The notes under the pieces: generated by a model
The model's input: the letters and a program-made list of their open reading frames with translations, nothing else
What the model was told of the DNA's origin: nothing
Database searches by the model: none
Made by a program: the position numbers and the translations under genes
NCBI RefSeq assembly: GCF_902825405.1
Contig: NZ_CADEAU010000011.1
Coordinates: 1 to 35,339 of the forward strand
Source of the DNA: Micromonospora maritima
Lineage (GTDB): Bacteria > Actinomycetota > Actinomycetes > Mycobacteriales > Micromonosporaceae
Direction of reading: 5' to 3'
DNA: 35,339 nucleotides
Part shown: positions 9,101 through 27,263 of the stretch, piece by piece
Layout: every line of letters starts with the position of its first letter
Position numbering within the stretch: the first letter of the stretch is position 1

Positions 9101-11128
9101 TCAGGTGGCCGGTGGGGGCGGCGGTACGACCGGCGGTCGGTCGTCGCAGGTGATGGTGTTCGGCAGCAGCCACGGGGCGAGCCAGCCACCGTCGTTGCCG
9201 CCGAGGTCGGTGAGGCCGAACTCCGAGCCCGCCGGGGTGAAGTGGAACGAGCCGCAGTTGTTCACGCCGACCGCGCCCACGTTGCGCGCGTCGACGTCGG
9301 CGAAGCTGGCCCCGCCGGCGGTGCGGGCGCTCACCACCGAGGTGCCCGTGCCGTCGACCCGGATGTCGCGGAACCGCACGGTGTCGATCCGGACGCGGTC
9401 CTTCACCGGCCAGTCGCTGACCAGCATGATCGCGTTGTAGGTGTTGTCCAGGTAGGCGTCGCCGGTGACCTGGATGTCGGCGTCGATGCTGCGGTCCAGC
9501 GCGTAGAACCAGATCGCACCGAGGCCGATGTTCCAGTTGAGGTCGTACGTGCCGGCCCGGACCGTGGTGTTGCCGGTGATCCGGATCCGGCCGGCGAACG
9601 GCTCGGCTCCGAACCGGGAACCGATCTGGATGGCGCTGCCCTCGCGGACCGGGTCGGCGATCAGGTTGTGGGCGACGGTCAGGTCGGCGCCGCCGTAGAG
9701 CGCGATCCCGTTGGCGAGCACCGGCGACTGCACGGTGTTGTACGCGAACGTGTTGGAGGCGTTCGCGGTCCCCTCCGACCACATGGCCAGGGCGTCGTCG
9801 CCACTGTTGCGGACCACCGAGTCGGTGACCGAGGAGTGGGTGACGCCGGTGTGGAAGTTGAGTCCGTCGGCGATCTGGTCGGCGATCACGGTGTCGGTGA
9901 CCCGCAGCCCGGTCATCGGCCCGTCGAACCACATGCCGACCTTGGTGTGGTGCAGGTAGAGGCCGTCGACGGTGCTGTGGTTGAGCGCGCCACCGATCGC
10001 GTTGACCTGGTCGGTGTCGATGCGTTCGCGGACGTCGCCCTCGATCGCGAAACCGGAGAGGTGGACGTGGCGACTGCCGCCGTCGGCGGCGTCGCGCCCG
10101 TAGAAGCCGACGCCGGTGTGGCGGGACCCGTCGGGTGCCGGGGTGTCCAGTGCGACCTCGCGTCCCTTCACGACGGTGTACCAGCTGCCCGCGCCCACGA
10201 TCGTCACGTCGTCGACGATCACGTGCCGGTTCACCTGGAAGGTGCCCGGCGGCAGGTAGAGCGGGCGGTCCACCCGGCGGGCGTACGCCACGGCCCGGTC
10301 GAACGCGGCGGCGGACTCCCGCCGCCCGGTCGGGTCGGCGCCGAAGGCGAGCACGTTCACCGCGTGGGCGAGCACCCGGGGCGGGGCGACCAGGTGCGCG
10401 TCCAGCAGGTCGATCACGGTCCAGGCGGCGGCCGTGCCGGTGGGCGCGGTCAGCCGCACCACCTCGCCGGCCCGGTGGGTGCGCCCGAGCAGCAGCCGCT
10501 GCTCGTCGTAGAAGTGGTGCGGCCGGAACGGCTTGGTGATCACGGGTGCGGGCGTGGTGGCCGCCGGTACGCATGAGCACTCGGTGATCCACCAGTCCGG
10601 GTGCAGCAGGTCCGCGTCGGGGTCGTTGGTGAACGGGTACTGGTTGTAGAGCCAGGCGTACTGCGAGGTGAGCGTCATGGTGCGCGCGGGCGCGCGGCCG
10701 ACGGCGACCCGCAGCGGCGCGGTGATGCCGCCGCCGCCCGGCGCGTCCGGGATGCTGTAGCGCACGGTCAGCGCGTTGGTGGCCCGGGGGAGCGTGAACT
10801 CGACGTACTGGCCGGGGAGCAGGCGGACGGCCCGGCGGCCGGACGCCTCGCCGGCCAGCGTGTAGGCGGACCGGTCGGGGCCGATGACGGTGCCTGTGGT
10901 GCGGGCGTTCTCGGCCTCCTGCTCGACGTAGTCGACGGTGGCGCCGCGCCCGGCCACCAGCGCGGGCTCGAGGGCGGCCCGGGTGGTCGCCGGAGCCGGG
11001 CCGGGGGTCGCGGTCGCCGCGGCGGCGGAGCCGGGCGGTACGACCAGGGCGGCGGCGGTGACCGCCGCCGCGAGGATCCTCGGTACGCACGGGCGGCGGC
11101 CCGCGGTGCCTTCCACGCTCCGTCGCAT
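9101..11128 (-). CDS. Secreted GH87 alpha-1,3-glucanase/mycodextranase-type enzyme (first copy)
   Basis: The ATG at 11126-11128 gives 675 aa with a signal peptide (basic MRRSVEG, then a hydrophobic Ala/Val core ending in SAAAATA). A CBM6-like beta domain follows (about 50-250; VEQEAENARTTGTVIGP, YVEFTL), then a right-handed beta-helix catalytic domain with the conserved DQVNAIGG and WFDGP blocks. D421 (DGLNFHTG) and D444/D445 (SGDDALAMW) are spaced 23 and 24 residues apart, matching the reported catalytic aspartates of GH87 alpha-1,3-glucanase Agl-FH1 (1045, 1068, 1069, from memory). Unlike the second copy it has a roughly 25-residue insertion with WWITECSC and no C-terminal binding module, only a Pro-rich tail. 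It is divergent from the LacI gene and has its own promoter, so it can be induced separately. Confidence 0.85.
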   Translation of the reverse strand: MRRSVEGTAGRRPCVPRILAAAVTAAALVVPPGSAAAATATPGPAPATTRAALEPALVAGRGATVDYVEQEAENARTTGTVIGPDRSAYTLAGEASGRRAVRLLPGQYVEFTLPRATNALTVRYSIPDAPGGGGITAPLRVAVGRAPARTMTLTSQYAWLYNQYPFTNDPDADLLHPDWWITECSCVPAATTPAPVITKPFRPHHFYDEQRLLLGRTHRAGEVVRLTAPTGTAAAWTVIDLLDAHLVAPPRVLAHAVNVLAFGADPTGRRESAAAFDRAVAYARRVDRPLYLPPGTFQVNRHVIVDDVTIVGAGSWYTVVKGREVALDTPAPDGSRHTGVGFYGRDAADGGSRHVHLSGFAIEGDVRERIDTDQVNAIGGALNHSTVDGLYLHHTKVGMWFDGPMTGLRVTDTVIADQIADGLNFHTGVTHSSVTDSVVRNSGDDALAMWSEGTANASNTFAYNTVQSPVLANGIALYGGADLTVAHNLIADPVREGSAIQIGSRFGAEPFAGRIRITGNTTVRAGTYDLNWNIGLGAIWFYALDRSIDADIQVTGDAYLDNTYNAIMLVSDWPVKDRVRIDTVRFRDIRVDGTGTSVVSARTAGGASFADVDARNVGAVGVNNCGSFHFTPAGSEFGLTDLGGNDGGWLAPWLLPNTITCDDRPPVVPPPPPAT

Positions 11129-11204
11129 CGGAGCACCCACTTTCGCGAGGAGGGACGGTGGTGGCCTCGGCGCGGGTGAGGGGTGCCCGCCGACAAGGTG
11201 CCTC

Positions 11205-11234
11205 ATGTTATTCCCGCCCTCTGCAAACTTTCAA
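11205..11234 (-). promoter_or_regulatory. Promoter of the first GH87 gene with LacI-type half site
   Basis: On the minus strand TTGAAA (11229-11234) and TAACAT (11205-11210) are 18 bp apart, with a leader of about 70 nt. The spacer holds GTTTGCAGAG, whose TGCAA core on the plus strand (11222-11226) resembles the TTGCAA centre of the operator in front of the LacI gene, so the same repressor may act here. Confidence 0.55.
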
Positions 11235-11302
11235 GCATGGCTATGTTCGAATCTTTCAGGTGGGGTACCGCGCAGGACGTCAAGGATCGGGCGCAGACAC
11301 TG

Positions 11303-11332
11303 TTCATTTCTTGCAAGAACCCGACGTACGAT
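11303..11332 (+). promoter_or_regulatory. Autoregulated, probably leaderless lacI promoter with palindromic operator
   Basis: TTCATT (11303-11308) and TACGAT (11327-11332) are 18 bp apart. The perfect 12-bp palindrome TTCTTGCAAGAA (11308-11319, central CpG-type GC step) fills the spacer, the standard place for a LacI-family repressor. The -10 ends 7 bp before the GTG at 11340 and there is no ribosome binding site, so transcription should begin at the start codon itself. Confidence 0.7.
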
Positions 11333-11339
11333 TGCCGCC

Positions 11340-12341
11340 GTGACGAAACGCTTGACCGAGGTGGCCCGCAAGGCGGGCGTCAGTGAGGCGACCGTGAGCC
11401 GCGTGCTCAACGGTCGCGGAGGCGTGTCCGAGGCGACCCGGACGGCCGTGCTGACCGCCCTCGACGTGCTCGGCTACGAGCGCCCGACCAAGCTGCGCGG
11501 GGAACGGGCCCGGCTGGTCGGGCTGGTGCTGCCCGAGCTGCAGAACCCGATCTTCCCGGCGTTGGCCGAGGTGGTCACCGGCTCCCTGGCCCAGCGCGGG
11601 TTCACCCCGGCGCTGTGCGCCCGCACCATCGGCGGCGTGCCCGAGTCGGGCTACGTGGAGATGCTGCTGGACCACCAGGTCAGCGGCGTCATCTTCGCCG
11701 GCGGCTCGTACGCGCTGGCGGACGCGTCGCACGAGCACTACCGCCGCCTGACCGATCGCGGCCTGCCCGTGGTGCTGGTCAACGCCGGTGTCGAGGAGTT
11801 GGGCTTCCCCCGGGTGTCCACCGACGACGCGGTCGCCGTCGAGCAGGCGTACGGGCACCTGCGTTCGCTCGGCCACGAGCGGATCGGCATGGTGCTCGGC
11901 CCGGAGGACCACGTGCCCTCGCGCCGCAAGCTGGACGCCATGGTCCGGGCCGCCGGCTGGGGGGAGGACCGGGAGTTCGTCGAGCGGTCCAGCTTCTCCA
12001 TGGAGGGTGCCCGGGTCGCGGCGACCAAGCTGGTCGAGCGCGGCGTGACCGGCATCGTCTGCGCCAGCGACGTGCTGGCCCTGGGCACCATCCGGGCCGC
12101 CCGGCGGCTGGGGCGGGCGGTGCCGGCCGACGTGTCGGTGGTGGGCTTCGACGACTCCGCGTTCATGACCTGCACAGACCCGCCGCTGACCACCGTGCGC
12201 CAGCCGATCGAGACGATGGGCCAGGCCGCCGTCGACCTGCTGGTCACCCAGATCGAGGGGGCCGGCGTGCTGCACGACGAGCTGCTCTTCGAGCCCGAAC
12301 TGGTGGTACGCGGCTCCACCGCCCCCGCTCCGCGTACCTGA
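11340..12341 (+). CDS. LacI-family transcriptional repressor of the alpha-glucan locus
   Basis: The GTG at 11340 gives 333 aa and begins right at the LacI helix-turn-helix (KRLTEVARKAGVSEATVSRV, then LNGRGGVSEATR and a hinge helix near ALDVLGYERP). A periplasmic-binding-protein-like sensor domain follows, with LVGLVLPELQNPIFPALAE, GVIFAGGSYALAD, the sugar-site region CASDVLALGTIRAARRLG and VSVVGFDDSAFM. These proteins are usually released from DNA by a mono- or oligosaccharide. It lies between a GH87 gene (divergent) and the sugar importer (same direction), so nigerose or a nigero/malto-oligosaccharide is the most reasonable inducer. Operator candidates with TTGCAA centres are in front of this gene and of its two neighbours. 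Confidence 0.93.
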   Translation: MTKRLTEVARKAGVSEATVSRVLNGRGGVSEATRTAVLTALDVLGYERPTKLRGERARLVGLVLPELQNPIFPALAEVVTGSLAQRGFTPALCARTIGGVPESGYVEMLLDHQVSGVIFAGGSYALADASHEHYRRLTDRGLPVVLVNAGVEELGFPRVSTDDAVAVEQAYGHLRSLGHERIGMVLGPEDHVPSRRKLDAMVRAAGWGEDREFVERSSFSMEGARVAATKLVERGVTGIVCASDVLALGTIRAARRLGRAVPADVSVVGFDDSAFMTCTDPPLTTVRQPIETMGQAAVDLLVTQIEGAGVLHDELLFEPELVVRGSTAPAPRT

Positions 12342-12359
12342 TTCCGGCGCGCCACCCGG

Positions 12360-12395
12360 CCGCCGACCGCACCCGCGGTCGGCGGTCCTTTTTGT
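12360..12395 (+). terminator. Intrinsic terminator of the LacI gene
   Basis: CCGCCGACCGC (12360-12370), loop ACCC, GCGGTCGGCGG (12375-12385), then TCCTTTTTG: an 11-bp perfect stem followed by a T-run, the most classical terminator in the window. Confidence 0.92.
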
Positions 12396-12425
12396 TTCCT
12401 CGAACGACGTCGTCGCGATCAGCCG

Positions 12426-12491
12426 TTGCAAAGTCGTGTTCTTTCGTCATGAGGTCGAAACCTTGCTGCGAAGAGTCGGCGTCGCTACATT
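12426..12491 (+). promoter_or_regulatory. Promoter and operator candidates of the sugar-import operon
   Basis: TTGCTG (12463-12468) and TACATT (12486-12491) are 17 bp apart, placing the start near 12498. A TTGCAA core (12426-12431, in GTTGCAAAG) lies 32 bp upstream of the -35, and CTTGCTGCGAAG (12462-12473), an imperfect inverted repeat, covers the -35. Both resemble the palindrome in front of the LacI gene. Confidence 0.5.
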
Positions 12492-12563
12492 GGCTCCACC
12501 TACCAGCGGTCTCCGCACATCAGTGAAAGCCATCGATACATCCGTTCCCGAAGGGATGGACAC

Positions 12564-13940
12564 ATGTCCGTACCGCAGCATCGGAAGGTCGCGGCGGTCG
12601 CGCTCGCGGCCGGCCTCGGGCTCAGCCTGGCGGCATGCTCCACCAAGAGCGACGACAGCAAGGACGCCGGCGGCAAGGTCACCATCACCGTCGACTGCCA
12701 GCCGGTCGGCGCGCAGAAGGAACTGCTGAAGAACTGGAACGACGACGTCGCCGAGTTCCAGCGGCAGAACCCGAACATCGTGGTCAAGAGCGTCAGCGTC
12801 GGCGAGCAGTGCAACAACCCGCCGGACTTCACCGCCCGCCTCGCCGGCGGCACCGTCACCGACGTGTTCTACGGCTACATGACCGACCTCCAGCAGGTGC
12901 TGGACTCCGGTCAGGCGATGGACATCACCGAGTACGTCACCAAGGACACCGTCCCGACCTGGGACAGCGTGGACCCGGCGCTCAAGGAGGTCTTCACCGA
13001 CGGCGGCAAGCTCTACGGCGTACCGGTGAAGAACTACTCCATGGGCCTGATCTACAACAAGGCGCTGTTCCAGCGGGCCGGCCTCGACGCGGCCAACCCG
13101 CCGAAGACGTGGCCCGAGGTGCGGACCGCGGCCAAGAAGATCTCGGCGCTCGGCGGCGGCGTCGCCGGCTACTCCGAGTACAGCGCCGGCAACACCGGCG
13201 GCTGGCACTTCACCTCGCTGCTCTACTCGCAGGGCGGCCAGGTGCTCAGCGCCGACGGCAAGAAGGCCGACTTCAACAACCCGATGGGCAAGCAGGTCCT
13301 GCAGAACCTCAAGGACATGCGCTACGGCGACGACAGCATGGGCAGCCGCCAGCTGCTCCAATGGGGCGACCTGCTGACCAACGCCGGCGCCGGCAAGGTC
13401 GGCATGTTCATCGGCGCGCCCGACGCGACCCAGGCGATCGTCAGCCAGTTCCAGGGCAAGTACCAGGACTGGGCGATGGGCCCGCTGCCCGGCCAGGACG
13501 GCCCGGCCAAGGCGACGCTCGGCGGCGGCGAGGGCTACTTCTTCAAGAAGGGCCTCACCCCGGAGCAGGTCAAGGCCGGTCTGAAGTGGATCGCCTACCA
13601 GAAGCTCACGCCGGGCAAGGGCCAGTTCGACTACGTCCGCGCCAAGCCGCAGAACTACCCGGTCGGCCTGCCCCAGCCGCTGCTGTTCGCAGGCGGCAGC
13701 GACGCGCAGAAGCAGGAGCTGGACCTGCGCAAGGCCAACGCGAACGTCGACACCGCCAACTTCGCGGTCTTCGAGGCCAACCCCGTGCCGATCAAGGGTG
13801 AGCCGCGCAACGCCCAGGCCATCTACGCGGTGCTCGACGCCGCCATGTCCGGGGTGCTGACCAACCCGAACGCGAACATCGACGCCCTGCTCAAGACCGC
13901 CGAGGAGAAGGTCAACCAGCTCCTGGCCGCCGGCAGCTGA
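12564..13940 (+). CDS. ABC sugar transporter substrate-binding lipoprotein
   Basis: The ATG at 12564 follows AAGGGA at 7 nt. The 458-aa product has a lipobox SLAAC with lipid attachment at C25, then a family-1 solute-binding fold: VTITVDCQPVGAQKELLKNW, DVFYGYMTDLQQVLDSG, LYGVPVKNYSMGLIYNKALF, KTWPEVRTAAKKI. Aromatic residues (Trp, Tyr) throughout suit binding of oligosaccharides. It is the first gene of the importer operon, downstream of the LacI gene and followed by two permease genes. An alpha-glucoside or nigero-oligosaccharide ligand is inferred from the flanking GH87 and GH13 genes; the sequence itself does not fix the ligand. Two cysteines, in DCQPV and EQCNNP, may form a disulfide. Confidence 0.93.
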   Translation: MSVPQHRKVAAVALAAGLGLSLAACSTKSDDSKDAGGKVTITVDCQPVGAQKELLKNWNDDVAEFQRQNPNIVVKSVSVGEQCNNPPDFTARLAGGTVTDVFYGYMTDLQQVLDSGQAMDITEYVTKDTVPTWDSVDPALKEVFTDGGKLYGVPVKNYSMGLIYNKALFQRAGLDAANPPKTWPEVRTAAKKISALGGGVAGYSEYSAGNTGGWHFTSLLYSQGGQVLSADGKKADFNNPMGKQVLQNLKDMRYGDDSMGSRQLLQWGDLLTNAGAGKVGMFIGAPDATQAIVSQFQGKYQDWAMGPLPGQDGPAKATLGGGEGYFFKKGLTPEQVKAGLKWIAYQKLTPGKGQFDYVRAKPQNYPVGLPQPLLFAGGSDAQKQELDLRKANANVDTANFAVFEANPVPIKGEPRNAQAIYAVLDAAMSGVLTNPNANIDALLKTAEEKVNQLLAAGS

Positions 13941-13947
13941 CCCGACC

Positions 13948-13979
13948 GGGTGGGGGTCGGCCCCGGCCGGCCCCCACCC
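13948..13979 (+). other. Stem-loop between binding-protein and permease genes
   Basis: GGGTGGGGG (13948-13956) pairs with CCCCCACCC (13971-13979), extended inward by a U-G pair and three GC pairs around a 6-nt loop. It has no T-run and ends 9 bp before the permease ribosome binding site. Such stem-loops commonly protect the binding-protein message and lower expression of the permeases, giving excess binding protein. Confidence 0.6.
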
Positions 13980-13997
13980 CCTACCGCAGGAGTCGCC

Positions 13998-14957
13998 TTG
14001 GCGCTCACCACCGCCCCGGGTGCCACCCACCGGCCCGGCCGTCCCGCACCGCCGCCGCGGCAGACCGCCGCGCGTCGGGCCGGGCTCGGCCGGAAGGTAC
14101 GGGACAACCTCACCGGGCACACGTTCCTCATCGGCGCGGTCGCCTGCTTCGCCGTCTTCTCCTGGTACCCGATGGTCCGCGGCGTCGTGATGAGCTTCCA
14201 GCGCACCCGGCGCGGCGAGACCACCTGGGTCGGCTGGGACAACTACACCCGGATCATTGCCGATCCGAGCTTCTGGACCGCCTGGAAGAACACGTTCGTC
14301 TTCACCGGCCTGGCGCTGGTGCTCGGGTACGCCGTGCCGTTCTTCGTGGCGATCCTGCTCAACGAGCTGCGCCACGCCAAGGGCTACCTGCGGGTGCTGG
14401 TCTACCTGCCGGTGATGCTGCCGCCGGCGTCCGCGCTGTTCCTGTTCAAGTTCTACGCGTACGACCCGAGCGAGGCGGGACTGTTCAACGCGGTCCTCAC
14501 CGCGCTCGGACTGCCCACGTCGGAGTGGATGCAGTCGCCGACCATGACGATGCCGGCCATGGTGCTGGCGTCGACCTGGATGAACATGGGCGGCGCCGTG
14601 CTGATCTACCTGGCCGCGTTGCAGAACATCCCCGGCGAGCTGTACGAGGCCGCCGAGATCGACGGCGCCGGGGTGTGGCGGCGGATCGTGCACGTGACGA
14701 TCCCGCAGACCCGGCTGATCCTCGCGTTGCTGGCGATGCTCCAGATCGTGGCCACCATGCAGCTGTTCATCGAGCCGCTGATCCTCGCCAACGGCGCCGG
14801 CACGCAGGACTCGGCGACCTCGGTGGCCTACCTGATCTACCAGCACGGGTTCTTCCAGAACGACCTCAACGGCGCCGCCGCGCTCGGCGTGATCATGCTG
14901 GTGGTGCTGGCCGGGTTCTCCGCCGTCTACGTGCGACTGACCGCGAGACAGGACTAG
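13998..14957 (+). CDS. ABC sugar transporter permease (first, MalF-like)
   Basis: I choose the TTG at 13998, preceded by GCAGGAG at 5 nt, giving 319 aa; the frame stays open upstream but lies in the hairpin region. After a basic cytoplasmic N-terminus, membrane helices are visible from about residue 45 (TFLIGAVACFAVFSWYPM) to the end (LGVIMLVVLAGFSAVYVRL). The EAA loop that contacts the ATPase is ELYEAAEIDGAGVWRRIVHV. The size and layout match MalF/LacF-type permeases of the CUT1 family. It pairs with the next gene, whose start is 3 bp after this stop. No ATPase gene is present, so a shared MsiK-like ATPase must energise it. Confidence 0.93.
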   Translation: MALTTAPGATHRPGRPAPPPRQTAARRAGLGRKVRDNLTGHTFLIGAVACFAVFSWYPMVRGVVMSFQRTRRGETTWVGWDNYTRIIADPSFWTAWKNTFVFTGLALVLGYAVPFFVAILLNELRHAKGYLRVLVYLPVMLPPASALFLFKFYAYDPSEAGLFNAVLTALGLPTSEWMQSPTMTMPAMVLASTWMNMGGAVLIYLAALQNIPGELYEAAEIDGAGVWRRIVHVTIPQTRLILALLAMLQIVATMQLFIEPLILANGAGTQDSATSVAYLIYQHGFFQNDLNGAAALGVIMLVVLAGFSAVYVRLTARQD

Positions 14958-14960
14958 GAC

Positions 14961-15848
14961 ATGGCCGCCGATCTCACCACCCGTACCCTCGTCTCCCCGG
15001 CCCAACTGCGGCGCGGTCGCGGCCGGGTCCTCTACTGGACCGTGCTCGCCGTCGTCGTGGTGGCGTTCACGCTGGTCTTCCTCGGTCCGCTCTACTGGAT
15101 GGTCACCGGCGCGCTGAAGTCCGGCCAGGAGATCGCGCAGACCCCGCCGTCGCTGTTCCCGCGCGACCCGCGGCCGCAGAACTACGTCGACGCCTGGACC
15201 AACCTCGACCTGGCGAAGCTGCTGTTCAACACGTTCTACTACGCCACCGGCGCGGTGCTGTTCCAGCTCGTGTTCGACACCGCCGCCGCGTACGCGCTGT
15301 CGAAGCTGCGCCCGGTGCTGGGCAAGCTGATCCTCGGCATGATGCTGGCGACGCTGATGATCCCGGCCATGGTGCTCATCGTCCCGCAGTACGTGACCGT
15401 GATCGACCTGCCGATCGTGCACCTCAACCTGCTCGACTCGCCGTTCGCGATCTGGCTGCCGCTGGTCGCCAACGCGTTCAACATCTTCCTGCTCAAGCGG
15501 TTCTTCGACTCGATCCCCGAGGACCTGATGGCCGCCGCGGTGATGGACGGCGCCACGCCGCTGCGCACGCTCTGGTCGATCGTCCTGCCGATGTCCCGCC
15601 CGATCCTCGGCGTGGTGGCGATCTTCGCGGTGACGGCGGTCTGGAAGGACTTCCTCTGGCCGAAGCTGGTCATGCCGTCCCCGGAGACGCGGACCGTCAG
15701 CGTCGGCATCTACGCCTTCTCCGGCGGCACCCCGATGAACGTGGTGATCGCCGCCTCGGTCATCGCCGCGATCCCCACCGTCGTGCTGTTCCTGATCTTC
15801 CAACGGAACATCATGTCCGGCCTGACCACCGGCGGCCTCAAGGGCTGA
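14961..15848 (+). CDS. ABC sugar transporter permease (second, MalG-like)
   Basis: The ATG at 14961 lies 3 bp after the first permease stop with AGGACTAGGA overlapping it as ribosome binding site. The 295-aa product has about six membrane helices (VVVVAFTLVFLGPLYWMVTG first, VVIAASVIAAIPTVVLFLIF last) and a MalG-type EAA loop, EDLMAAAVMDGATPLRTLWS. Conserved Pro and Gly positions in PRDPRPQNYVDAW and in KDFLWPKLV are typical of CUT1 second permeases. It forms the membrane channel with the first permease. A 50-bp gap separates it from the GH13 gene, which has its own ribosome binding site and probably shares the transcript. Confidence 0.94.
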   Translation: MAADLTTRTLVSPAQLRRGRGRVLYWTVLAVVVVAFTLVFLGPLYWMVTGALKSGQEIAQTPPSLFPRDPRPQNYVDAWTNLDLAKLLFNTFYYATGAVLFQLVFDTAAAYALSKLRPVLGKLILGMMLATLMIPAMVLIVPQYVTVIDLPIVHLNLLDSPFAIWLPLVANAFNIFLLKRFFDSIPEDLMAAAVMDGATPLRTLWSIVLPMSRPILGVVAIFAVTAVWKDFLWPKLVMPSPETRTVSVGIYAFSGGTPMNVVIAASVIAAIPTVVLFLIFQRNIMSGLTTGGLKG

Positions 15849-15898
15849 CGGGCGCACCGCCCGCCGCATCAGAACCGACCCGCAGAAAGCAGGTGCCC

Positions 15899-17530: not shown

Positions 17531-17537
17531 ACCGCGG

Positions 17538-17571
17538 CGGCGCCGGCGGCACCGTCCCGCCGCCGGCGCCG
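17538..17571 (+). terminator. Stem-loop after the GH13 gene
   Basis: CGGCGCCGGCGG (17538-17549) pairs with CCGCCGGCGCCG (17560-17571), 12 bp with a 10-nt loop, no T-run. No convincing promoter is seen between here and the next start at 17690, so it may attenuate rather than end transcription. Confidence 0.6.
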
Positions 17572-17689
17572 TGACACCGGGCGGCCCCTCCCGGCCGCCA
17601 CCGGAAGAGGACCTGGGGAGGACAGGAGGGAGACAGGAGCACCGCCGCACGGGGGGACCTGGCCACCGACGAAAGGGAGCACACCCCGC

Positions 17690-20545
17690 ATGGCCGAGCA
17701 CCGCACCGCGCACCGCCACCGCAGCACCGGGCTGGCCGCCCTGGCCGCCGCCGCGCTCGCCGCCTCGACACTGACAGTCGTGGCGTTGACCTCCACCGCC
17801 ACCCCGGCCCACGCCGCCGGACTGTCCCCGTTCGACATCGCCGGCCGCGGCGCCACCGTCGGATTCCGGGAGCAGGAGGCGGAACAGGTCGCACACACCG
17901 GCGCGAAGATCGGCCCCGACCGGCGCTACGGAACGCTGCCGTCCGAGGCGTCCGGCCGGGAGGCGGTCACCCTCGACGCCGTCGGCGAGTACGTCGAGTT
18001 CACGCTCACCGCCCCGGCGAACGCGGTCACCTTCCGCTACAGCCTGCCGGACAGCGCCGCCGGCACCGGCCGGGACGCCAGCATCGACCTGCGCGCCAAC
18101 GGCACGCTGGTCAAGGCCGTCTCGGTCACCTCCCGGTACGGCTGGTACTACGGCGGCTACCCGTTCAACAACAACCCGGGCGACACCAACCCGCACCACT
18201 TCTACGACGAGACCCGGACGATGTTCGGCACCACCTACCCGGCCGGCGCGAAGATCCGCCTCCAGGTCTCCTCGACCGCGCAGTCGCCCACCTTCACCAT
18301 CGACCTGGCCGACTTCGAGCTGGTCGGGGCACCGATCAGCAAGCCCTCCGGCGTGCTGGACGTGGTCACCGACTTCGGCGCGGACCCGACCGGCGCCACC
18401 GACTCGACCGCGAAGTTCCAGGCCGCGGTGGACGCCGGCAGGGCGCAGGGGAAGGCGGTCTGGATCCCGTCCGGCACGTTCACGCTCTGGGACCACGTGG
18501 TGGTCGACGGCGTCACGCTGCGCGGCGCCGGGCCGTGGTACTCGGTGCTCGGCGGCCGGCACCCCACCGACCGCAAGCGTGCCGCCGGCATCTACGGCAA
18601 GTACGTGCCCGGCGGCGGCTACTCCGGTGAGATCCGCTCGCACGAGGCGGGCGGACCGAGCCGCAACGTCACGCTGCGGGACTTCGCCATCATCGGCGAC
18701 ATCCGGGAACGGGTGGACGAGGACCAGGTCAACGCCATCGGCGGCGCGATGACGAACTCGGTGGTGGACAACCTCTGGTTGCAGCACACCAAGGTCGGCG
18801 CCTGGATGGACGGCCCGATGGACAACTTCACCATTCGCAACAGCCGGATCCTCGACCAGACCGCCGACGGGGTGAACTTCCACTGGGGCGTCACCAACTC
18901 CACGGTGACCAACACGTTCGTCCGCAACACCGGTGACGACGCGCTGGCCATGTGGGCGCAGAGCGTGCCGAACGTCGGCAACTCCTTCACCCACAACACG
19001 ATCGGCGTGACGATCCTGGCGAACCACCTGGTGACGTACGGCGGACGCGACATCACCATCGCGGACAACGTGACCGCCGACTCGGTGACCAACGGCGGCG
19101 GCATCCACGTGGCGAACCGGTATCCGGGGGTCACCGGGCCGACCGCCGTGGCCGGCACGATCACGGTCGCCCGCAACACGCTGATCCGCAACGGCAACTC
19201 CGACTACAACTGGCAGTTCGGCGTCGGCGCGATCTGGTTCTCCGCGCTCAACGAGCCGATCCAGGGCGCGGCGATCACCGTCACCGACACCGACATCCTG
19301 GACAGCTCCTACGCGGCCTTGCACTGGATCGAGGGACAGACCAGCGGCATCTCGTTCGACAACGTCCGGATCGACGGCGCGGGCACGTACGCGCTCCAGG
19401 TGCAGGCGCCCAGCCAGGTCCGGTTCACGAACGTCCGGGCCACCGGCATCGCCCAGGCCAACCCGATGCACAACTGCGTCGGCAGCGGCTTCCAGATCAC
19501 CCAGGGCACCGGCAACTCCGGCTGGTTCACGCCCACCCCGTACTGCGGGCCGTGGCCGCAGCCGCAGTGGGGCAACGGCCCGTCCAGCCCGCCGCCCACA
19601 AGCGTGCCCCCGACCACCGCACCCCCGACCACGACCCCGCCGACCAGCACGCCCCCGACCACCCCGCCGTCGACCGGCGGGAACCTGGCCCTGGGCCGGC
19701 CGGCGACCGCGACAAGCGTCAACCAGGTGTACGCGGCCGGCAACGCGGTCGACGGCAACGCGGGCAGCTACTGGGAGAGCGCCAACAACGCGTTCCCGCA
19801 GTCGCTGACCGTCGACCTGGGCGCGTCCCGCACCGTCGACCGGGTGGTGCTCAAACTCCCGGCCGGCTGGGAGCGCCGCACCGAGACGCTGTCCGTGCTC
19901 GGGTCCACCGACGGCTCGTCGTACAGCACGCTCGTCGCGTCGGCGGGCCGCGTGTTCGACCCGGCGGCCGGCAACAGCGTGTCGATCGCGCTGCCGTCCG
20001 GCGCCCGCCGGTACGTCCGGGTCACCGTCACCGGCAACACCGGCTGGCCGGCCGCCCAGCTCTCCGAGCTTGAGGTGTACGGCGACGGCACGACCACCAC
20101 CCCGCCGCCCACCACCGCGCCCCCGACCGGCAACCTCGCCGCCGGGCGGCCGGTCGCGGAGACCAGCCACGCCGACGTCTACGGTGCCGGCAACACCGTC
20201 GACGGCAACCCGAACACCTACTGGGAGAGCGCCAACAACGCGTTCCCCCAGTCGGTCACCGTCGACCTGGGCAGCGCCCGGCCGGTGTCCCGGGTGGTGC
20301 TCAAGCTGCCGCCGTCGGCGGCCTGGCAGACCCGCACCCAGACGGTGGCCGTGCTCGGCTCCACCGACGGCTCGTCGTTCGCCACGCTCAAGGCGGCGGC
20401 CGGTTACCCGTTCGACCCGGCGGCCGGCAACGGCGTGTCGATCGCGCTGCCCTCCGGTGACCGCCGCTACGTGCGGCTGACCTTCACCGGCAACACCGGC
20501 TGGCCGGCCGGCCAGCTCTCCGAGTTCGAGGTCTACGCCTCCTGA
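17690..20545 (+). CDS. Secreted GH87 enzyme with two C-terminal discoidin modules (second copy)
   Basis: The ATG at 17690 follows AAAGGGAG at 10 nt and gives 951 aa. A signal peptide ends near residue 42 (PAHA). A CBM6-like domain (about 43-215; FREQEAEQVAHTG) leads to a beta-helix GH87 domain (about 220-620) with DQVNAIGG, WMDGP, DGVNFHWG (D393) and TGDDALAMW (D416, D417), the same 23/24 spacing as the first copy. A Pro/Thr linker follows, then two F5/8 type C (discoidin) modules at about 663-798 and 813-951. The two modules are near-duplicates, each with YWESANNAFPQS and FDPAAGN. They probably bind insoluble glucan. It follows the GH13 gene and likely acts on alpha-1,3-glucan or nigeran outside the cell. 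Confidence 0.88.
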   Translation: MAEHRTAHRHRSTGLAALAAAALAASTLTVVALTSTATPAHAAGLSPFDIAGRGATVGFREQEAEQVAHTGAKIGPDRRYGTLPSEASGREAVTLDAVGEYVEFTLTAPANAVTFRYSLPDSAAGTGRDASIDLRANGTLVKAVSVTSRYGWYYGGYPFNNNPGDTNPHHFYDETRTMFGTTYPAGAKIRLQVSSTAQSPTFTIDLADFELVGAPISKPSGVLDVVTDFGADPTGATDSTAKFQAAVDAGRAQGKAVWIPSGTFTLWDHVVVDGVTLRGAGPWYSVLGGRHPTDRKRAAGIYGKYVPGGGYSGEIRSHEAGGPSRNVTLRDFAIIGDIRERVDEDQVNAIGGAMTNSVVDNLWLQHTKVGAWMDGPMDNFTIRNSRILDQTADGVNFHWGVTNSTVTNTFVRNTGDDALAMWAQSVPNVGNSFTHNTIGVTILANHLVTYGGRDITIADNVTADSVTNGGGIHVANRYPGVTGPTAVAGTITVARNTLIRNGNSDYNWQFGVGAIWFSALNEPIQGAAITVTDTDILDSSYAALHWIEGQTSGISFDNVRIDGAGTYALQVQAPSQVRFTNVRATGIAQANPMHNCVGSGFQITQGTGNSGWFTPTPYCGPWPQPQWGNGPSSPPPTSVPPTTAPPTTTPPTSTPPTTPPSTGGNLALGRPATATSVNQVYAAGNAVDGNAGSYWESANNAFPQSLTVDLGASRTVDRVVLKLPAGWERRTETLSVLGSTDGSSYSTLVASAGRVFDPAAGNSVSIALPSGARRYVRVTVTGNTGWPAAQLSELEVYGDGTTTTPPPTTAPPTGNLAAGRPVAETSHADVYGAGNTVDGNPNTYWESANNAFPQSVTVDLGSARPVSRVVLKLPPSAAWQTRTQTVAVLGSTDGSSFATLKAAAGYPFDPAAGNGVSIALPSGDRRYVRLTFTGNTGWPAGQLSEFEVYAS
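19681..20542 (+). repeat. Tandem duplicated discoidin-module coding repeats
   Basis: Two units of about 410 bp (about 19681-20087 and 20131-20540) are recognisably the same sequence at DNA level; TACTGGGAGAGCGCCAACAA is identical in both (19769 and 20220 region). Related copies lie in the next gene, near 20826 and 21244. This suggests fairly recent duplication and possible recombination between genes. Confidence 0.75.
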
Positions 20546-20550
20546 CCGGC

Positions 20551-20580
20551 GCGGCGGGGACCGCCCCGGGTCCCCGCCGC
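20551..20580 (+). terminator. Stem-loop between the two plus-strand GH87 genes
   Basis: GCGGCGGGGACC (20551-20562) pairs with GGTCCCCGCCGC (20569-20580), 12 bp with a 6-nt loop, no T-run. The 60 bp that follow show no clear promoter before the next start, so partial read-through is expected. Confidence 0.65.
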
Positions 20581-20640
20581 ACCACCCCCACCCCCGTCAA
20601 CGCCTCTCCACGTCCCCCGGGAAGAAGGTGTCCGTCCACC

Positions 20641-23600
20641 ATGTCCAGATTCCGTACCAGCGTGGTCGCGGTGCTCGCCGCGGTCGGCCTGGCCGTCACC
20701 GCGGCGCCCGCCCCGCCCGCCCTGGCCGCCGGCGGCCCGAACCTCGCCGCCGGTCGCACCGCCACCGCCAGCAGCGTCAACGGCCCCTACGTCACGGCGA
20801 ACCTGACCGACGGCAACCAGGGCAGCTACTGGGAGAGCAGCGGCACGCTGCCCCAGTGGGCCCAGGTCGATCTCGGCACCAGCCGCGCGGTCGACCAGGT
20901 GGTGCTCAAGCTCCCCGCCGCCTGGGAGGCGCGCAACCAGACGTTGTCCGTGCAGGCCAGCGCCGACGGCAGCGGCTTCACCACGGTCGTCGCCTCCGCC
21001 GCCCGCTCGTTCAGCCCGGCCGCCGGCAACACGGTGACGCTCGGCTTCTCCGCCACCGACGCCCGCTACCTGCGCGTGGTGGTCACCGCGAACACCGGCT
21101 GGACCGCCGCGCAGCTCGCCGAACTGGAGGTCTACGGCACCGCTTCCTCGTCGACCAACCTGGCGCTCGGCAAGACCATGACCGAAAGTGGTCACTCCGA
21201 CGTCTACCCGGCCGGCAACGCCAACGACGGCAACGCGGCCACCTACTGGGAGAGCCCGAACAACGCGTTCCCGCAGTGGATCCAGGCCGACCTCGGTGCC
21301 GCCACCAGCGTCAACCGGCTGGTGCTGCGCCTGCCCACGGGCTGGGGCGCGCGCACCCAGACGCTGACCGTGCAGGGCAGCACGAACGGCTCGACGTTCG
21401 GCACGCTCGTCGGCTCCGCGTCGTACGCCTTCGACCCGGCCGGGGGCAACACGGTGACGGTCACCGTGCCCACCGCGTCCACCCGGTACGTGCGGCTGCT
21501 GTTCACCGCGAACAGCGCCTGGCCGGCCGGGCAGCTCTCCGAACTGGAGATCTACGGCCCGGCCACCGGCGACACCCAGGCGCCGAGCGCGCCGGGCAAC
21601 CTGGCGTTCACCGAGCCGGCCACCGACCAGGTCCGGCTCACCTGGACCGCGTCCACCGACAACGTCGGCGTGACCGGCTACGACGTGTACGCCAACGGCG
21701 TGCTGCGCACCACGGTCGGCGGCTCCACGCTGACGTACACCGACACCCAGCCCGCCGGGACCACCGTCTCCTACTACGTCCGGGCGCGCGACGCCGCCGG
21801 GAACGTGTCGGCGAACAGCACCACTGTCACCCGCACCGGCAACACCGGCGACACCACCGCGCCCACCGCCCCCGGCAACCTGGCCTACACCCAGCCGGGG
21901 AGCGGGCAGATCCGGCTGACCTGGACCGTGTCCACCGACAACGTGGGCGTCACCGGCTACGAGGTGTGGGCCAACGGGTCGCTGCGCACCACCGTCGGCG
22001 GCTCCGCGCTCACGTACACCGACAGCCAGCCGGACACCGCCACCGTCTCCTACCAGGTGCGGGCCCGCGACGCGGCAGGCAACGTGTCCGCCACCAGCAA
22101 CACGGTCACCCGCACCGGCACCACCACAGGCGGCACCAACCTGGCGGTCGGCAAACCGGCCACCGCCTCGTCCGTGGTGCACGTGTTCAACGCGGCCAAC
22201 GCCGTCGACAACGACGTCACCACCTACTGGGAGGGCGCGCCGGGCGCGTACCCGAGCACGCTCACCGTCGCGCTCGGCGCGAACGCCAGCATCAGCGCGG
22301 TCGTGGTGAAGCTCAACCCGGATCCGGCGTGGGGCGCGCGTACCCAGACGTTCCAGGTGCTCGGCCGGGAGCAGTCCGCCTCCGGGTTCACCAGCCTGGT
22401 CGGCTCCGCGACGTACTCGTTCAACCCGAACACCGGCAACACCGTGACCGTTCCGGTGTCCGCGACCGCCGCGGACGTCCGGCTCCAGTTCACCGCGAAC
22501 TCCGGCTCGTCCAACGGGCAGATCGCCGAACTCCAGGTGATCGGCGTCCCGGCCCCCAACCCGGACCTCACCGTCACCGCCGTCACCGCGTCACCGTCCG
22601 CGCCGGTGGAGACCGACGCGATCACCCTGTCCGCCACCGTCCGCAACGCCGGCAGCGCGGCGTCCGCCGCCACGACCGTCAACCTCTACCTGGGTACGAC
22701 GAAGGTCGGCACCGCCTCCGTCGGCGCGCTCGCGGCCGGCGCGTCGAGCACCGTCTCGGCGGGAATCGGCGCGCGCAACGCCGGCAGCTACCCGCTCACC
22801 GCGAAGGTCGACGAGTCGAACGCGGTGATCGAGCAGAACGAGGCGAACAACTCCTGGACCGGTCCGACCGCGCTGACGGTCAGCCCGGTGGCGAGCTCCG
22901 ACCTGGTGGCCTCCGCGGTGACCTGGTCGCCGGGCACGCCGGCCGCCGGCGCCACGGTCAGCTTCGCGGTGACGCTGCGCAACCAGGGCACGATCGCCTC
23001 GGCCGGCGGATCACACGGCATCACGCTCACCGTGCTCAACGAGTCCGGCGCGGTGGTCCGCACGTTGACCGGCGCGTACTCCGGCACGATCGCCGCCGGG
23101 GCGACCGCCGGCCCGGTGTCGCTCGGCACCTGGACCGCCGCCAACGGGCGCTACACGGTGCGGGTGGTGCTCGCCGACGACGCCAACGAGCTGCCGGTGA
23201 AGCGGCAGAACAATTCGAGCGACCGGGCGCTGTTCGTCGGTCGCGGGGCGAACCTGGGCTACGACATGTACGAGGCCGAGGACGGCTCGGTCGGCGGCGG
23301 CGCGCAGGTGATCGGCCCGAACCGCACCATCGGCGACCTGGCCGGCGAGGCGTCCGGGCGACGCGCGGTCACCCTCAACACCACCGGCGCGTACGTCGAG
23401 TGGACCACCAGGTCGGCCGCGAACGCCCTGGTCACCCGTTTCTCCATCCCGGACGCGCCGGGCGGCGGCGGGATCGACTCGACGTTGAACGTCTACGTCG
23501 ACGGGGTGCTGCACAAACCGATCAGCCTCACCTCGAAGCACATCTGGCTCTACGGCGCGGAGGCCGGCCCGAGCGACTCGCCCAGCGCGGGCGCCCCCCG

Positions 23601-24927
23601 GCACCTCTACGACGAGGCGAACGTGCTGCTCAACTCCACCGTCCCGGCGGGCAGCCGGATCCGGCTCCAGAAGGACCCGGCGAACAGCACCACGTACGCG
23701 ATCGACTTCGTCAACACCGAGCTGGTCTCGCCCCGGGCCAACCCCGACCCGACCCGCTACAAGGTGCCCACCGGCTTCAGCCACGCCGACGTGCAGAACG
23801 CGCTCGACGCGGTCCGGATGGACACCACCGGCACGCTGGTCGGCGTCTACCTGCCCGCCGGCACGTACGAGACCGCGCAGAAGTTCCAGGTGTACGGCAA
23901 GGCCGTGAAGGTCGTCGGCGCCGGCATGTGGTACACCCGCTTCCAGACGCCGACGAACCAGCAGAACACCGACGCCGGTTTCCGGGTGGAGTCCTCGGCC
24001 AGCGGGTCGACCTTCGCCCACCTGGCGTTCTTCGGCAACTACACCAACCGGATCGACGGTCCGGGCAAGGTGTGGGGCGAGCTGAAGGACGTGGACGACC
24101 TGACGCTGGACAGCGTCTGGGTCGAGCACACCGTCTGCGCCTACTGGGGGGTGAGCGTGGACGGGCTGACCATCCGGGACAGCCGGTTCCGCGACACCTT
24201 CGCCGACGCGGTGAACATGACGAACGGCAGCACCAACGCCCTGGTCACCAACTCGGAGGGCCGGTCCAACGGCGACGACGCGTTCGCGTTGTTCTCCGCC
24301 ACCGACCAGGGAGGCTCGGGCGGCAACCACGGCAACGTGTTCGAGAACCTGACCGCCACGCTGACCTGGCGGGCGGCCGGCATCGCCGTGTACGGCGGCT
24401 ACGACAACGTGTTCCGCAACCTCTACATCGCCGACCAGCTGACGTACTCGGGCATCACCATCAGCTCGCTGGACTTCGGCTACCCGTTCGTCGGGTTCGG
24501 CGCCAGCCCGCCCACCCGGTTCGAGAACATCTCGCTGATCCGCTCGGGCGGGCACTTCTGGGGTGCGCAGACATTCCCGGCGATGTGGTTGTTCTCCGCG
24601 TCCAAGGAGTTCCGCGGCATCCGGGTGAGCGACGTGGACATCGTCGACCCGACGTACTCGGGGATCATGTTCCAGACCAAGTACACCGGCAGCCAGCCGG
24701 AGAACCCGATCACCGACACGGTCCTGACGAACGTCTCGATCTCGGGGGCGCGACGCAGCGGTGACGCGTTCGACGCGAAGTCCGGCTTCGGCATCTGGGT
24801 CAACGAGATGCCCGAGACGGGCCAGGGCCCCGCGGTCGGCGCGGCCACCTTCACCAACCTCCGCCTCACCGACAACGCCCAGGACATCAAGAACACGACG
24901 AGCACGTTCATCATCACCCGCAATTGA
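20641..24927 (+). CDS. Large multimodular secreted GH87 enzyme (third copy)
   Basis: The ATG at 20641 gives 1428 aa. After the signal peptide (ending near ALA, residue 29) come discoidin 1 (about 33-170), discoidin 2 (173-310), two Fn3 domains (about 318-400 and 405-490, each with STDNVGVTGY), discoidin 3 (497-635), two CARDB domains (about 640-750 and 752-865), a CBM6-like domain with YEAEDGSVGGGAQVIGP, and the beta-helix GH87 domain at the C-terminus (about 1035-1428). Catalytic positions are D1189 (DAVNMTNG) and D1212/D1213 (NGDDAFALFS), again 23/24 apart, but flanking residues differ from the other two copies (DGxNFHxG, DDALAMW), suggesting different linkage or product preference. Modules are N-terminal here and C-terminal in the second copy. 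It should act on insoluble fungal-type alpha-glucan. Confidence 0.86.
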   Translation: MSRFRTSVVAVLAAVGLAVTAAPAPPALAAGGPNLAAGRTATASSVNGPYVTANLTDGNQGSYWESSGTLPQWAQVDLGTSRAVDQVVLKLPAAWEARNQTLSVQASADGSGFTTVVASAARSFSPAAGNTVTLGFSATDARYLRVVVTANTGWTAAQLAELEVYGTASSSTNLALGKTMTESGHSDVYPAGNANDGNAATYWESPNNAFPQWIQADLGAATSVNRLVLRLPTGWGARTQTLTVQGSTNGSTFGTLVGSASYAFDPAGGNTVTVTVPTASTRYVRLLFTANSAWPAGQLSELEIYGPATGDTQAPSAPGNLAFTEPATDQVRLTWTASTDNVGVTGYDVYANGVLRTTVGGSTLTYTDTQPAGTTVSYYVRARDAAGNVSANSTTVTRTGNTGDTTAPTAPGNLAYTQPGSGQIRLTWTVSTDNVGVTGYEVWANGSLRTTVGGSALTYTDSQPDTATVSYQVRARDAAGNVSATSNTVTRTGTTTGGTNLAVGKPATASSVVHVFNAANAVDNDVTTYWEGAPGAYPSTLTVALGANASISAVVVKLNPDPAWGARTQTFQVLGREQSASGFTSLVGSATYSFNPNTGNTVTVPVSATAADVRLQFTANSGSSNGQIAELQVIGVPAPNPDLTVTAVTASPSAPVETDAITLSATVRNAGSAASAATTVNLYLGTTKVGTASVGALAAGASSTVSAGIGARNAGSYPLTAKVDESNAVIEQNEANNSWTGPTALTVSPVASSDLVASAVTWSPGTPAAGATVSFAVTLRNQGTIASAGGSHGITLTVLNESGAVVRTLTGAYSGTIAAGATAGPVSLGTWTAANGRYTVRVVLADDANELPVKRQNNSSDRALFVGRGANLGYDMYEAEDGSVGGGAQVIGPNRTIGDLAGEASGRRAVTLNTTGAYVEWTTRSAANALVTRFSIPDAPGGGGIDSTLNVYVDGVLHKPISLTSKHIWLYGAEAGPSDSPSAGAPRHLYDEANVLLNSTVPAGSRIRLQKDPANSTTYAIDFVNTELVSPRANPDPTRYKVPTGFSHADVQNALDAVRMDTTGTLVGVYLPAGTYETAQKFQVYGKAVKVVGAGMWYTRFQTPTNQQNTDAGFRVESSASGSTFAHLAFFGNYTNRIDGPGKVWGELKDVDDLTLDSVWVEHTVCAYWGVSVDGLTIRDSRFRDTFADAVNMTNGSTNALVTNSEGRSNGDDAFALFSATDQGGSGGNHGNVFENLTATLTWRAAGIAVYGGYDNVFRNLYIADQLTYSGITISSLDFGYPFVGFGASPPTRFENISLIRSGGHFWGAQTFPAMWLFSASKEFRGIRVSDVDIVDPTYSGIMFQTKYTGSQPENPITDTVLTNVSISGARRSGDAFDAKSGFGIWVNEMPETGQGPAVGAATFTNLRLTDNAQDIKNTTSTFIITRN

Positions 24928-27241: not shown

Positions 27242-27263
27242 GACAGCACAGAGTAGCGCTACT
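27223..27263. promoter_or_regulatory. Paired TAGCGCTA operators flanking overlapping divergent starts
   Basis: TAGCGCTA occurs at 27223-27230 and 27254-27261, 31 bp (three helical turns) apart; the second is part of the perfect palindrome AGTAGCGCTACT (27252-27263), and TAGCGCTAC is a 9-bp direct repeat. Each copy overlaps a TANNNT element: TACCAT (27229-27234) for the plus gene, TACTCT (complement of 27250-27255) for the minus gene. Both start codons (CATG, 27239-27242) lie between, an arrangement expected for a MocR dimer controlling both genes. Confidence 0.7.

What the first reader, a model, noticed from the sequence alone, without database searches (positions are those of the whole stretch)
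9101..24927. A self-contained alpha-1,3-glucan/nigeran utilisation locus
Seen: three GH87 genes, a LacI regulator, a CUT1 binding protein with two permeases, and a GH13 alpha-glucosidase sit together with no unrelated gene between. Known: GH87 contains only alpha-1,3-glucanases and mycodextranases. Inference: this is an actinobacterial counterpart of a polysaccharide utilisation locus for fungal cell-wall alpha-1,3-glucan or nigeran, with degradation, import, intracellular hydrolysis and regulation all encoded. Single GH87 enzymes are described; an integrated three-enzyme locus with importer and repressor is, to my knowledge, little described.
Basis: partly seen in the sequence, partly recalled or inferred. 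Interest (0 to 1): 0.85.

Follow-up and report, generated by a model that had tools for sequence, protein, structure and literature searches.

The report
Conserved alpha-1,3-glucan utilisation locus, actinomycetes
An actinomycete carries, in one stretch of DNA, secreted enzymes, a sugar importer, an internal sugar-splitting enzyme and a repressor that look made for eating alpha-1,3-glucan (a fungal wall polymer), and the same gene set recurs in many related genera, though it has not been tested at the bench here.

Summary
In detail: 9101-24927 holds three GH87 genes, LacI, a CUT1 binding protein (SBP), two permeases and a GH13, with no other gene between. All three GH87s keep the catalytic Asp triad.

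The reading as a co-regulated alpha-1,3-glucan-type locus is supported:
- LacI-SBP-permease-permease-GH13 is complete in 56 of 60 order loci and 74 of 80 named loci.
- GH87 occurs in 55 of 61 genomes with this SBP and 9 of 237 without.
- GH87 lies inside the operon in 23 of 80 named loci.
- TTKC boxes 21 bp apart precede the SBP in 120 of 141 loci and lacI in 83 of 132; at control genes 0 of 137 and 0 of 139.
- The genome has a separate maltodextrin-type locus.

Limits: no ATPase in the locus, so not self-contained; sugar imported and GH13 linkage are inferred; 6 of 61 SBP genomes lack GH87; the SBP-side repeat is missing in 13 of 23 in-operon loci. It fits the published Gram-positive PUL definition. 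Six searches of an open-access library listed no description of it.

The parts
9101..11206 (-). GH87A, secreted by eye, 701 aa, catalytic unit only (no Pfam binding module found)
   Evidence: CatAgl_D1 117 bits, CatAgl_D2 66 bits; closest solved chain 7c7d alpha-1,3-glucanase, 318.6 bits; motif ADGLNF...NSGDD
11308..11335 (+). Putative LacI operator 1: perfect palindrome TTCTTGCAAGAA (11308-11319) and a second TTGC 21 bp on; lies between divergent GH87A and lacI and ends 4 bp before the lacI GTG
   Evidence: Palindrome found once in the genome at up to 1 mismatch; 28-bp pattern has only two exact matches in the genome; 21-bp repeat in 32 of 34 genus lacI upstreams, exact palindrome in 11 of 34
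11340..12341 (+). LacI-family regulator, 333 aa
   Evidence: LacI HTH and Peripla_BP_3; a paralogue 56% identical sits on contig C16
12439..12466 (+). Putative LacI operator 2, TTCTTTC-N16-CTTGC, overlapping the -35 of a promoter-like TTGCTG-N18-TACATT (promoter read by eye)
   Evidence: The other exact genome match of the operator pattern; 21-bp repeat in 33 of 34 genus SBP upstreams
12564..13940 (+). CUT1 solute-binding lipoprotein, 458 aa
   Evidence: SBP_bac_1 122.5 bits; lipobox-like LSLAAC (by eye); model pLDDT 85.5
13950..14957 (+). CUT1 permease 1, 335 aa
   Evidence: BPD_transp_1 55.6 bits
14961..15848 (+). CUT1 permease 2, 295 aa
   Evidence: BPD_transp_1 50.5 bits
15899..17530 (+). 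GH13 alpha-glucosidase-like enzyme, 543 aa, no signal peptide seen by eye, presumed cytoplasmic (an in-frame GTG at 15893 is also possible)
   Evidence: Alpha-amylase domain 316.6 bits on the longer frame; closest solved chain 8yif alpha-glucosidase, 535.5 bits; region II reads RIDSAG where the C16 and C44 paralogues read DVAH
17690..20545 (+). GH87B, secreted by eye, 951 aa, with two C-terminal F5/8 type C modules
   Evidence: CatAgl_D1 156 bits, CatAgl_D2 64 bits, F5_F8_type_C two stretches; 7c7d 379.4 bits
20641..24927 (+). GH87C, secreted by eye, 1428 aa: F5/8 type C modules (three stretches), fn3, CARDB, then a C-terminal GH87 unit
   Evidence: CatAgl_D2 351 bits, CatAgl_D1 259 bits; closest 6k0m, 405.8 bits

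Best explanation
The locus is a Gram-positive polysaccharide-utilisation locus for an alpha-1,3-linked glucan (fungal wall alpha-1,3-glucan, mutan or nigeran). Secreted GH87A, B and C cut the polymer; B and C may be held on it by F5/8 type C modules. The lipoprotein and two permeases import the short alpha-glucosides, powered by a shared MalK/MsiK-type ATPase encoded elsewhere. The cytoplasmic GH13 splits them to glucose. The LacI protein represses its own gene and the SBP-permease-permease-GH13-GH87B-GH87C unit by binding TTKC half-sites 21 bp apart, and an imported or derived sugar releases it. Shown here: the genes, catalytic residues, conservation, co-occurrence and operator-like repeats. 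Inferred: substrate, inducer, LacI binding itself, transcript extent into GH87B/C, control of GH87A from the shared intergenic region, and ATPase sharing.
For: Domains and catalytic motifs. Core five genes complete in 56 of 60 order loci and 74 of 80 named loci. GH87 in 55 of 61 SBP-positive against 9 of 237 SBP-negative genomes of the order, and in 32 of 34 against 0 of 10 within the genus (compared by hand from the listings; Fisher values). In a class-wide sample all 47 GH87-bearing genomes of 394 hold an SBP relative at E<=1e-45, and 28 of 35 high-scoring SBP hits have GH87 within 10 kb. GH87 lies inside the operon between permease and GH13 in 23 of 80 named loci, and follows GH13 in the same direction within 1.2 kb in 29 of 60 order and 25 of 80 named loci (two in-operon GH87s confirmed by Pfam). 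The 21-bp TTKC repeat precedes the SBP in 120 of 141 and lacI in 83 of 132 loci, against shuffle means near 2 and 0 of 137 and 0 of 139 before GH13 and the second permease; after removing repeats of the same upstream sequence, and without the window, 107 of 127 and 80 of 127. In Amycolatopsis the stricter form precedes the first of two tandem GH87 genes in 4 of 5 loci, and in the fifth the two TTGC boxes are also 21 bp apart with one flanking letter changed. LacI is nearer the window's LacI than the mal-type one in 76 of 76 named loci compared. A separate MalE/MalF-like locus exists in the genome.
Against: GH87 is absent from 6 of 61 SBP-positive genomes, and 22 of 60 order loci have no GH87 in the fetched stretch, some because contigs end, so the core cassette exists without GH87 beside it. 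Nine GH87-bearing genomes of the order lack the SBP at E<=1e-60. No operator-like repeat lies upstream of GH87B or GH87C; of 152 GH87 genes examined only 9 have the 21-bp spacing (mean 1.7 per spacing) and 5 the stricter form. In the 23 in-operon loci the SBP-side repeat is found in only 10 (lacI side 20 of 23), and LacI there is only 48-67% identical to the window's. The repeat overlaps the -35 region, so promoter conservation may explain part of it. No ATPase is in the locus. The solved GH13 relatives are plain alpha-glucosidases and the SBP fold does not discriminate linkage. Related genomes are not independent, so the Fisher values overstate significance.
Confidence: 0.77

Rival explanations
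1. The locus is mainly a maltose/maltodextrin or broad alpha-glucoside uptake system (malR-malEFG-aglA type), beside which secreted GH87 genes have settled.
For: Gene order resembles a LacI-malEFG-alpha-glucosidase set; the LacI is 56% identical to the C16 LacI and the GH13 57-61% to two paralogues; the half-sites resemble the CTTGCAG core of S. lividans MalR (PMC5526262, passages); core genes without nearby GH87 exist; alpha-glucosidases are the closest solved GH13 relatives.
Against: The genome has its own MalE/MalF-like locus on contig C16, whose SBP is 20% identical to this one and whose lacI-SBP stretch lacks the 21-bp repeat; GH87 presence tracks this SBP within one genus, 32 of 34 against 0 of 10; GH87 is inside the operon in 23 of 80 named loci.
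Confidence: 0.15
2. A sub-case of the best explanation: the true polymer is nigeran (alternating alpha-1,3/alpha-1,4) or another mixed alpha-glucan. GH87A and/or B are mycodextranases, and the importer takes nigerose and nigerosylmaltose.
For: GH87 includes mycodextranases from actinomycetes (PMC10696023; PMC11475409; passages); GH87A and B score far lower than C against the Paenibacillus-type chain 6k0m; GH13 alpha-glucosidases often act on alpha-1,4 bonds (recalled).
Against: The closest solved relative of A and B is the S. thermodiastaticus alpha-1,3-glucanase 7c7d, and C is closest to the alpha-1,3-glucanase chain 6k0m. No mycodextranase sequence was compared.
Confidence: 0.3
3. The three GH87s serve mainly as antifungal lytic weapons; the adjacent importer is incidental salvage.
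For: A GH87 enzyme, Agl-EK14, hydrolyses fungal wall alpha-1,3-glucan (PMC10696023, passages); some genomes carry GH87 away from the importer.
Against: Conserved linkage to a regulator, importer and cytoplasmic hydrolase is what nutrition predicts.
Confidence: 0.12

Closest known systems
Gram-positive polysaccharide utilisation loci (gpPULs) of Roseburia/Eubacterium rectale (PMC5320581; listing and passages seen)
   Different: Different phylum and substrate; no ATPase in this locus; GH87 does not occur in that paper's text by the term count
malR-malEFG of Streptomyces and AmlR-AmlE/AcrC of Actinoplanes (PMC5526262, PMC6828939; passages seen)
   Same: LacI-type repressor, CUT1 importer or GH13 alpha-glucosidase; TTGC-centred half-sites resembling MalR's CTTGCAG
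   Different: SBP and first permease only 20-25% identical to this genome's own mal-like locus; linked to secreted GH87; 21-bp-spaced repeat absent from the C16 stretch
Prevotella melaninogenica GH87 PUL (PMC13421300, passages seen)
   Same: GH87 grouped with a regulator, a transporter and other glucan hydrolases
   Different: Bacteroidota type: TonB-dependent transporter and SusD-like protein, GH97 and GH71/99, no ABC importer listed
GH87 alpha-1,3-glucanases with solved structures: 7c7d (S. thermodiastaticus, per PMC11475409), 6k0m and 5zru (AglFH1 and Agl-KA; PDB-to-name match recalled)
   Same: Same two-domain catalytic unit and Asp motif
   Different: The passages and titles seen describe single enzymes; no surrounding locus was described in what I saw

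Membership tests
GH87 | CatAgl_D1 and CatAgl_D2 above curated cut-offs | tested here: met
   GH87A, B, C
GH87 | Catalytic Asp triad (AglFH1 D1045, D1068, D1069) | tested here: met
   Alignments; motifs; residue roles from PMC10696023
GH87 | Hydrolysis of alpha-1,3-glucan or nigeran | not testable with these tools
   Needs enzyme assays
Gram-positive PUL (gpPUL) | Polysaccharide-degrading enzyme in the locus | tested here: met
   Three GH87 genes by domain
Gram-positive PUL (gpPUL) | Carbohydrate transport system in the locus | tested here: met
   SBP and two permeases; ATPase outside
Gram-positive PUL (gpPUL) | Transcriptional regulator in the locus | tested here: met
   LacI; operator-like repeats
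Bacteroidetes PUL | TonB-dependent transporter/SusD pair | tested here: not met
   No such domain among the locus proteins scanned
malEFG maltodextrin transporter | SBP and first permease of MalE and MalF type | tested here: not met
   MalE model 20 bits here against 218 bits for the C16 SBP (cut-off 291, reached by neither); MalF model 66 bits here against 340 for C16 (cut-off 392, reached by neither); TM_PBP2_N absent here, present in the C16 permease
CUT1 ABC importer | SBP, two permeases and a MalK-type ATPase | tested here: inconclusive
   SBP and permeases in the locus; three OB_MalK matches elsewhere in the genome; pairing untested
LacI/GalR regulators | LacI HTH plus periplasmic-binding-like domain | tested here: met
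   PF00356, PF13377
MalR regulon | CTTGCAG half-sites before the target operon | tested here: inconclusive
   Similar TTGC-centred half-sites but a 21-bp direct-repeat layout

The most novel reading that the evidence does not exclude
Actinomycetes share an undescribed, dedicated regulon for alpha-1,3-glucan: a LacI repressor kin to MalR that reads TTKC boxes exactly two helical turns (21 bp) apart, a nigero-oligosaccharide importer, and a GH13 clade whose changed region II (RIDSA in place of DVAH in the window's genus and several others) marks a nigerose/alpha-1,3-glucosidase specificity. In the window's genus the importer was exchanged in place between a conserved repressor and a conserved GH13.
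Probability: 0.33. Interest if true: 0.65.

Novelty: new member of a known kind. Interest (0 to 1): 0.52.

Why it matters
Alpha-1,3-glucan is a fungal wall and dental-plaque polymer, and the bacterial GH87 papers I saw mostly treat single enzymes. A conserved locus with enzyme, importer, hydrolase and repressor would explain how filamentous actinomycetes feed on fungal walls, give a sequence signature (the 21-bp repeat) for finding further members, and supply candidate nigerose-specific binding proteins and GH13 alpha-1,3-glucosidases.

Tried and rejected
Maltodextrin identity was tested by locating the genome's own MalE/MalF-like locus and judged less likely. The idea that GH87B and C have their own operator was tested and not supported. 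A GC-rich hairpin-like stretch after the GH13 (about 17536-17570, by eye) is not kept throughout the genus alignment, so I did not build on it. In 12 loci, mostly without GH87 beside the core genes, I looked for other polysaccharidases by reading ORF starts only, with no domain search; none stood out, which is weak evidence. The SBP model comparison (two searches were waiting) ranks maltose, sucrose, cycloalternan and beta-1,2-glucan binders within a few Z units and does not decide specificity. Rfam gave no match at gathering scores. ARAGORN gave no tRNA. The paper search for PDB 8yie/8yif gave nothing useful; QsGH13 (passages) gave no nigerose data; the GH13/nigerose search was seen as a listing only.

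Errors of mine: one search used a LacI query in the wrong frame (start 11342); redone. One search printed wrong class-level Fisher tables through a script fault; corrected ones are (per-hit counts are unaffected). Order-level counts entered were compared by hand from the listings. After the recount I lowered two confidences slightly, because the SBP-side repeat is missing in 13 of 23 in-operon loci.

Dropped or unexamined rows: of the 62 SBP matches outside the window I fetched 60 (not G079:C260 nor the half-length G033:C1). The 20 class loci were chosen by me, mostly with GH87 nearby, and are not a random sample. The 80 named loci are the best 80 of 567 relatives, themselves from a capped candidate list, ranked by likeness to the sister-genus SBP; three of them repeat order loci. 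Trees used subsets (31 to 35 rows each).
Full report
Observation. The ORF lists and domain scans confirm eight genes in 9101-24927 with nothing unrelated between. GH87A runs leftwards from 11206, divergent from lacI (GTG 11340). SBP, two permeases, GH13, GH87B and GH87C run rightwards with gaps of 9, 3, 50, 159 and 95 bp. GH87C is closest to chain 6k0m, GH87A and B to 7c7d, the S. thermodiastaticus enzyme (organism of 7c7d from PMC11475409). The Asp and Asp-Asp positions described as catalytic in AglFH1 (PMC10696023, passages) are present in all three. The genome (G000, 6.2 Mb, 986 contigs) has three PF22815 matches, all here.

Conservation of the grouping. In a sample of 298 genomes of the order, the SBP (E<=1e-60) occurs in 61 and GH87 (PF22815) in 64. 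Comparing the two listings by hand, 55 genomes have both, 6 SBP only, 9 GH87 only. In the window's genus (44 genomes), GH87 is in 32 of 34 SBP-positive and 0 of 10 SBP-negative genomes. In a class-wide sample of 394 genomes (overlapping the first; of its 47 GH87-bearing genomes only two, the window's own and G028, carry order-sample handles), 67 have an SBP match at E<=1e-45 and 47 have GH87; all 47 are among the 67. Of 35 high-scoring SBP hits, 32 genomes have GH87 and 28 have it within 10 kb; of 56 weaker hits only 7 have GH87 within 10 kb. Related genomes are not independent events.

Locus anatomy elsewhere. Of 60 order loci fetched, 56 have all five core genes and 38 a GH87 in the stretch. 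The 22 without include short contigs but also complete neighbourhoods, among them four genomes of one genus (L070-L073) that have no GH87 match anywhere. Of 80 named loci (Micromonospora, Actinoplanes, Asanoa, Catellatospora, Streptomyces, Kitasatospora, Amycolatopsis, Saccharothrix and others), 74 have all five core genes and 59 a GH87. In 23 of the 80 GH87 lies between permease and GH13, inside the operon; in none of the 60 order loci. Pfam confirms GH87 with CBM6/CBM35-type modules there in Streptomyces fulvorobeus (L192) and Catellatospora sichuanensis (L172). These in-operon loci are a variant: their LacI is 48-67% and their GH87 37-42% identical to the window's, but LacI is nearer the window's than the mal-type LacI in 76 of 76 named loci compared. 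In 29 of 60 order and 25 of 80 named loci a GH87 follows GH13 in the same direction, as in the window.

Regulation. A perfect palindrome TTCTTGCAAGAA lies at 11308-11319, found once in the genome at up to one mismatch; the exact palindrome is kept before lacI in 11 of 34 genus loci. What is widely kept is two TTKC boxes exactly 21 bp apart, before the SBP (33 of 34 in the genus, 87 of 107 elsewhere) and before lacI (32 of 34 and 51 of 98). Over all loci the repeat precedes 120 of 141 SBP genes and 83 of 132 lacI genes; shuffles give about 2 (at most 5), and starts of GH13 and of the second permease give 0 of 137 and 0 of 139. Counting each upstream sequence once, without the window, it is 107 of 127 and 80 of 127. 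Of 31 named genera, 26 have it before most SBP genes; Catellatospora (1 of 7), Hamadaea (0 of 2), Streptosporangium (0 of 1), Dactylosporangium (0 of 1) and Actinophytocola (1 of 2) do not. In the 23 in-operon loci it precedes the SBP in 10 and lacI in 20. In the window it overlaps the -35 region of the SBP promoter, so part of its conservation may reflect the promoter. A 28-bp pattern has exactly two exact matches in the genome, both in this locus; at one mismatch there are three more, against four for the reversed-pattern control. In five Amycolatopsis loci with two tandem GH87 genes upstream of lacI, the stricter form precedes the first GH87 gene in four and in the fifth the TTGC boxes are also 21 bp apart, which ties regulator and GH87 directly in that genus. 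Across 152 GH87 genes, however, only 9 have the spacing and 5 the stricter form. In the window GH87B and C have no such site, so they are presumably reached by read-through; GH87A shares only the intergenic region with operator 1.

Distinct from the maltose system. The genome carries on contig C16 a LacI 56% and a GH13 61% identical to these, divergent from a MalE-like SBP, a MalF-like permease and, further on, a maltodextrin-glucosidase-like gene (scores below the curated equivalog cut-offs). On C44 there is another SBP-permease-permease set with a GH13 57% and a LacI 36% identical. The C16 SBP is 20% identical to the locus SBP, and its lacI-SBP stretch lacks the 21-bp repeat. The locus GH13 has RIDSAG in conserved region II where both paralogues have DVAH; other families show RIDSA(A/V) or RIDVAD (rows shown). 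That is consistent with a changed specificity but does not show one. A MalK-type ATPase on C177 has no permease frame called beside it in the stretch read and is a candidate shared ATPase; the MsiK role in Streptomyces is recalled, not looked up.

Evolution. In the window's genus LacI is 91% and GH13 78% identical to a sister genus (L068), but SBP and permeases are only 50-57%. Trees of the concatenated importer reject the genus grouping with that sister genus (AU p 8.8e-8) or with it and L069 (2.9e-6). The lacI tree places L068 next to the genus, but tests of the importer-like grouping on lacI and GH13 do not reject it (p 0.12 and 0.13). An in-place exchange of the importer, or its strong divergence on a long branch, is likely; no close donor turned up. 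Micromonospora rosaria (L150) has the sister-genus type importer (SBP 79%) with a LacI 93% identical to the window's.

Literature. Six searches aimed at such a locus and passages read gave GH87 enzymes, a Bacteroidota GH87 PUL (PMC13421300), mutan-growing Streptomyces (PMC11475409) and the gpPUL definition (PMC5320581), but no description of this actinobacterial locus in the listed rows. The listings are capped and the library is open-access only, so absence there is weak.

Verdict. A real, conserved gpPUL that most likely serves an alpha-1,3-linked glucan: a new member of a known kind with a clear regulatory signature. Substrate, inducer and linkage specificity remain to be tested.

Noticed in passing
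12564-15848 compared with L068, L150: Importer genes of the window's genus are only 50-57% identical to those of a sister genus whose lacI is 91% identical, suggesting an in-place importer swap; M. rosaria has the other type.
   Followed up: partly
L066: In one genome of the genus (G163) the locus is rearranged: GH87C inverted after GH13, with a divergent lacI (69%) and GH87A further on.
   Followed up: no
11327-11340: A -10-like TACGAT lies 7 bp before the lacI GTG, so the lacI transcript may be leaderless; the stretch recurs in many genus loci.
   Followed up: no
2134-3597 and 31616-35339: Other likely secreted carbohydrate enzymes flank the locus: a CBM2-GH5, a pectate lyase-like protein and a CBM2-GH30-like protein.
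   Followed up: no
450-2090: AurF-like N-oxygenase frame overlapping an opposite-strand TetR-like frame at 432-1139; the true start at the overlap was not settled.
   Followed up: no
25850-31554: A GntR-aminotransferase regulator, an EamA transporter and a large NB-ARC protein with many TPR repeats follow the locus.
   Followed up: no
L205: A record titled Rhodococcus rhodnii carries the core locus (SBP 54%, LacI 69%) like those of Pseudonocardiaceae-type genera; possibly mislabelled or transferred.
   Followed up: no
L166, L168, L171-L175, L177: Several Catellatospora/Hamadaea loci carry a LacI gene of the same kind after the GH13/GH87 genes, most of them in addition to one before the SBP.
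   Followed up: no
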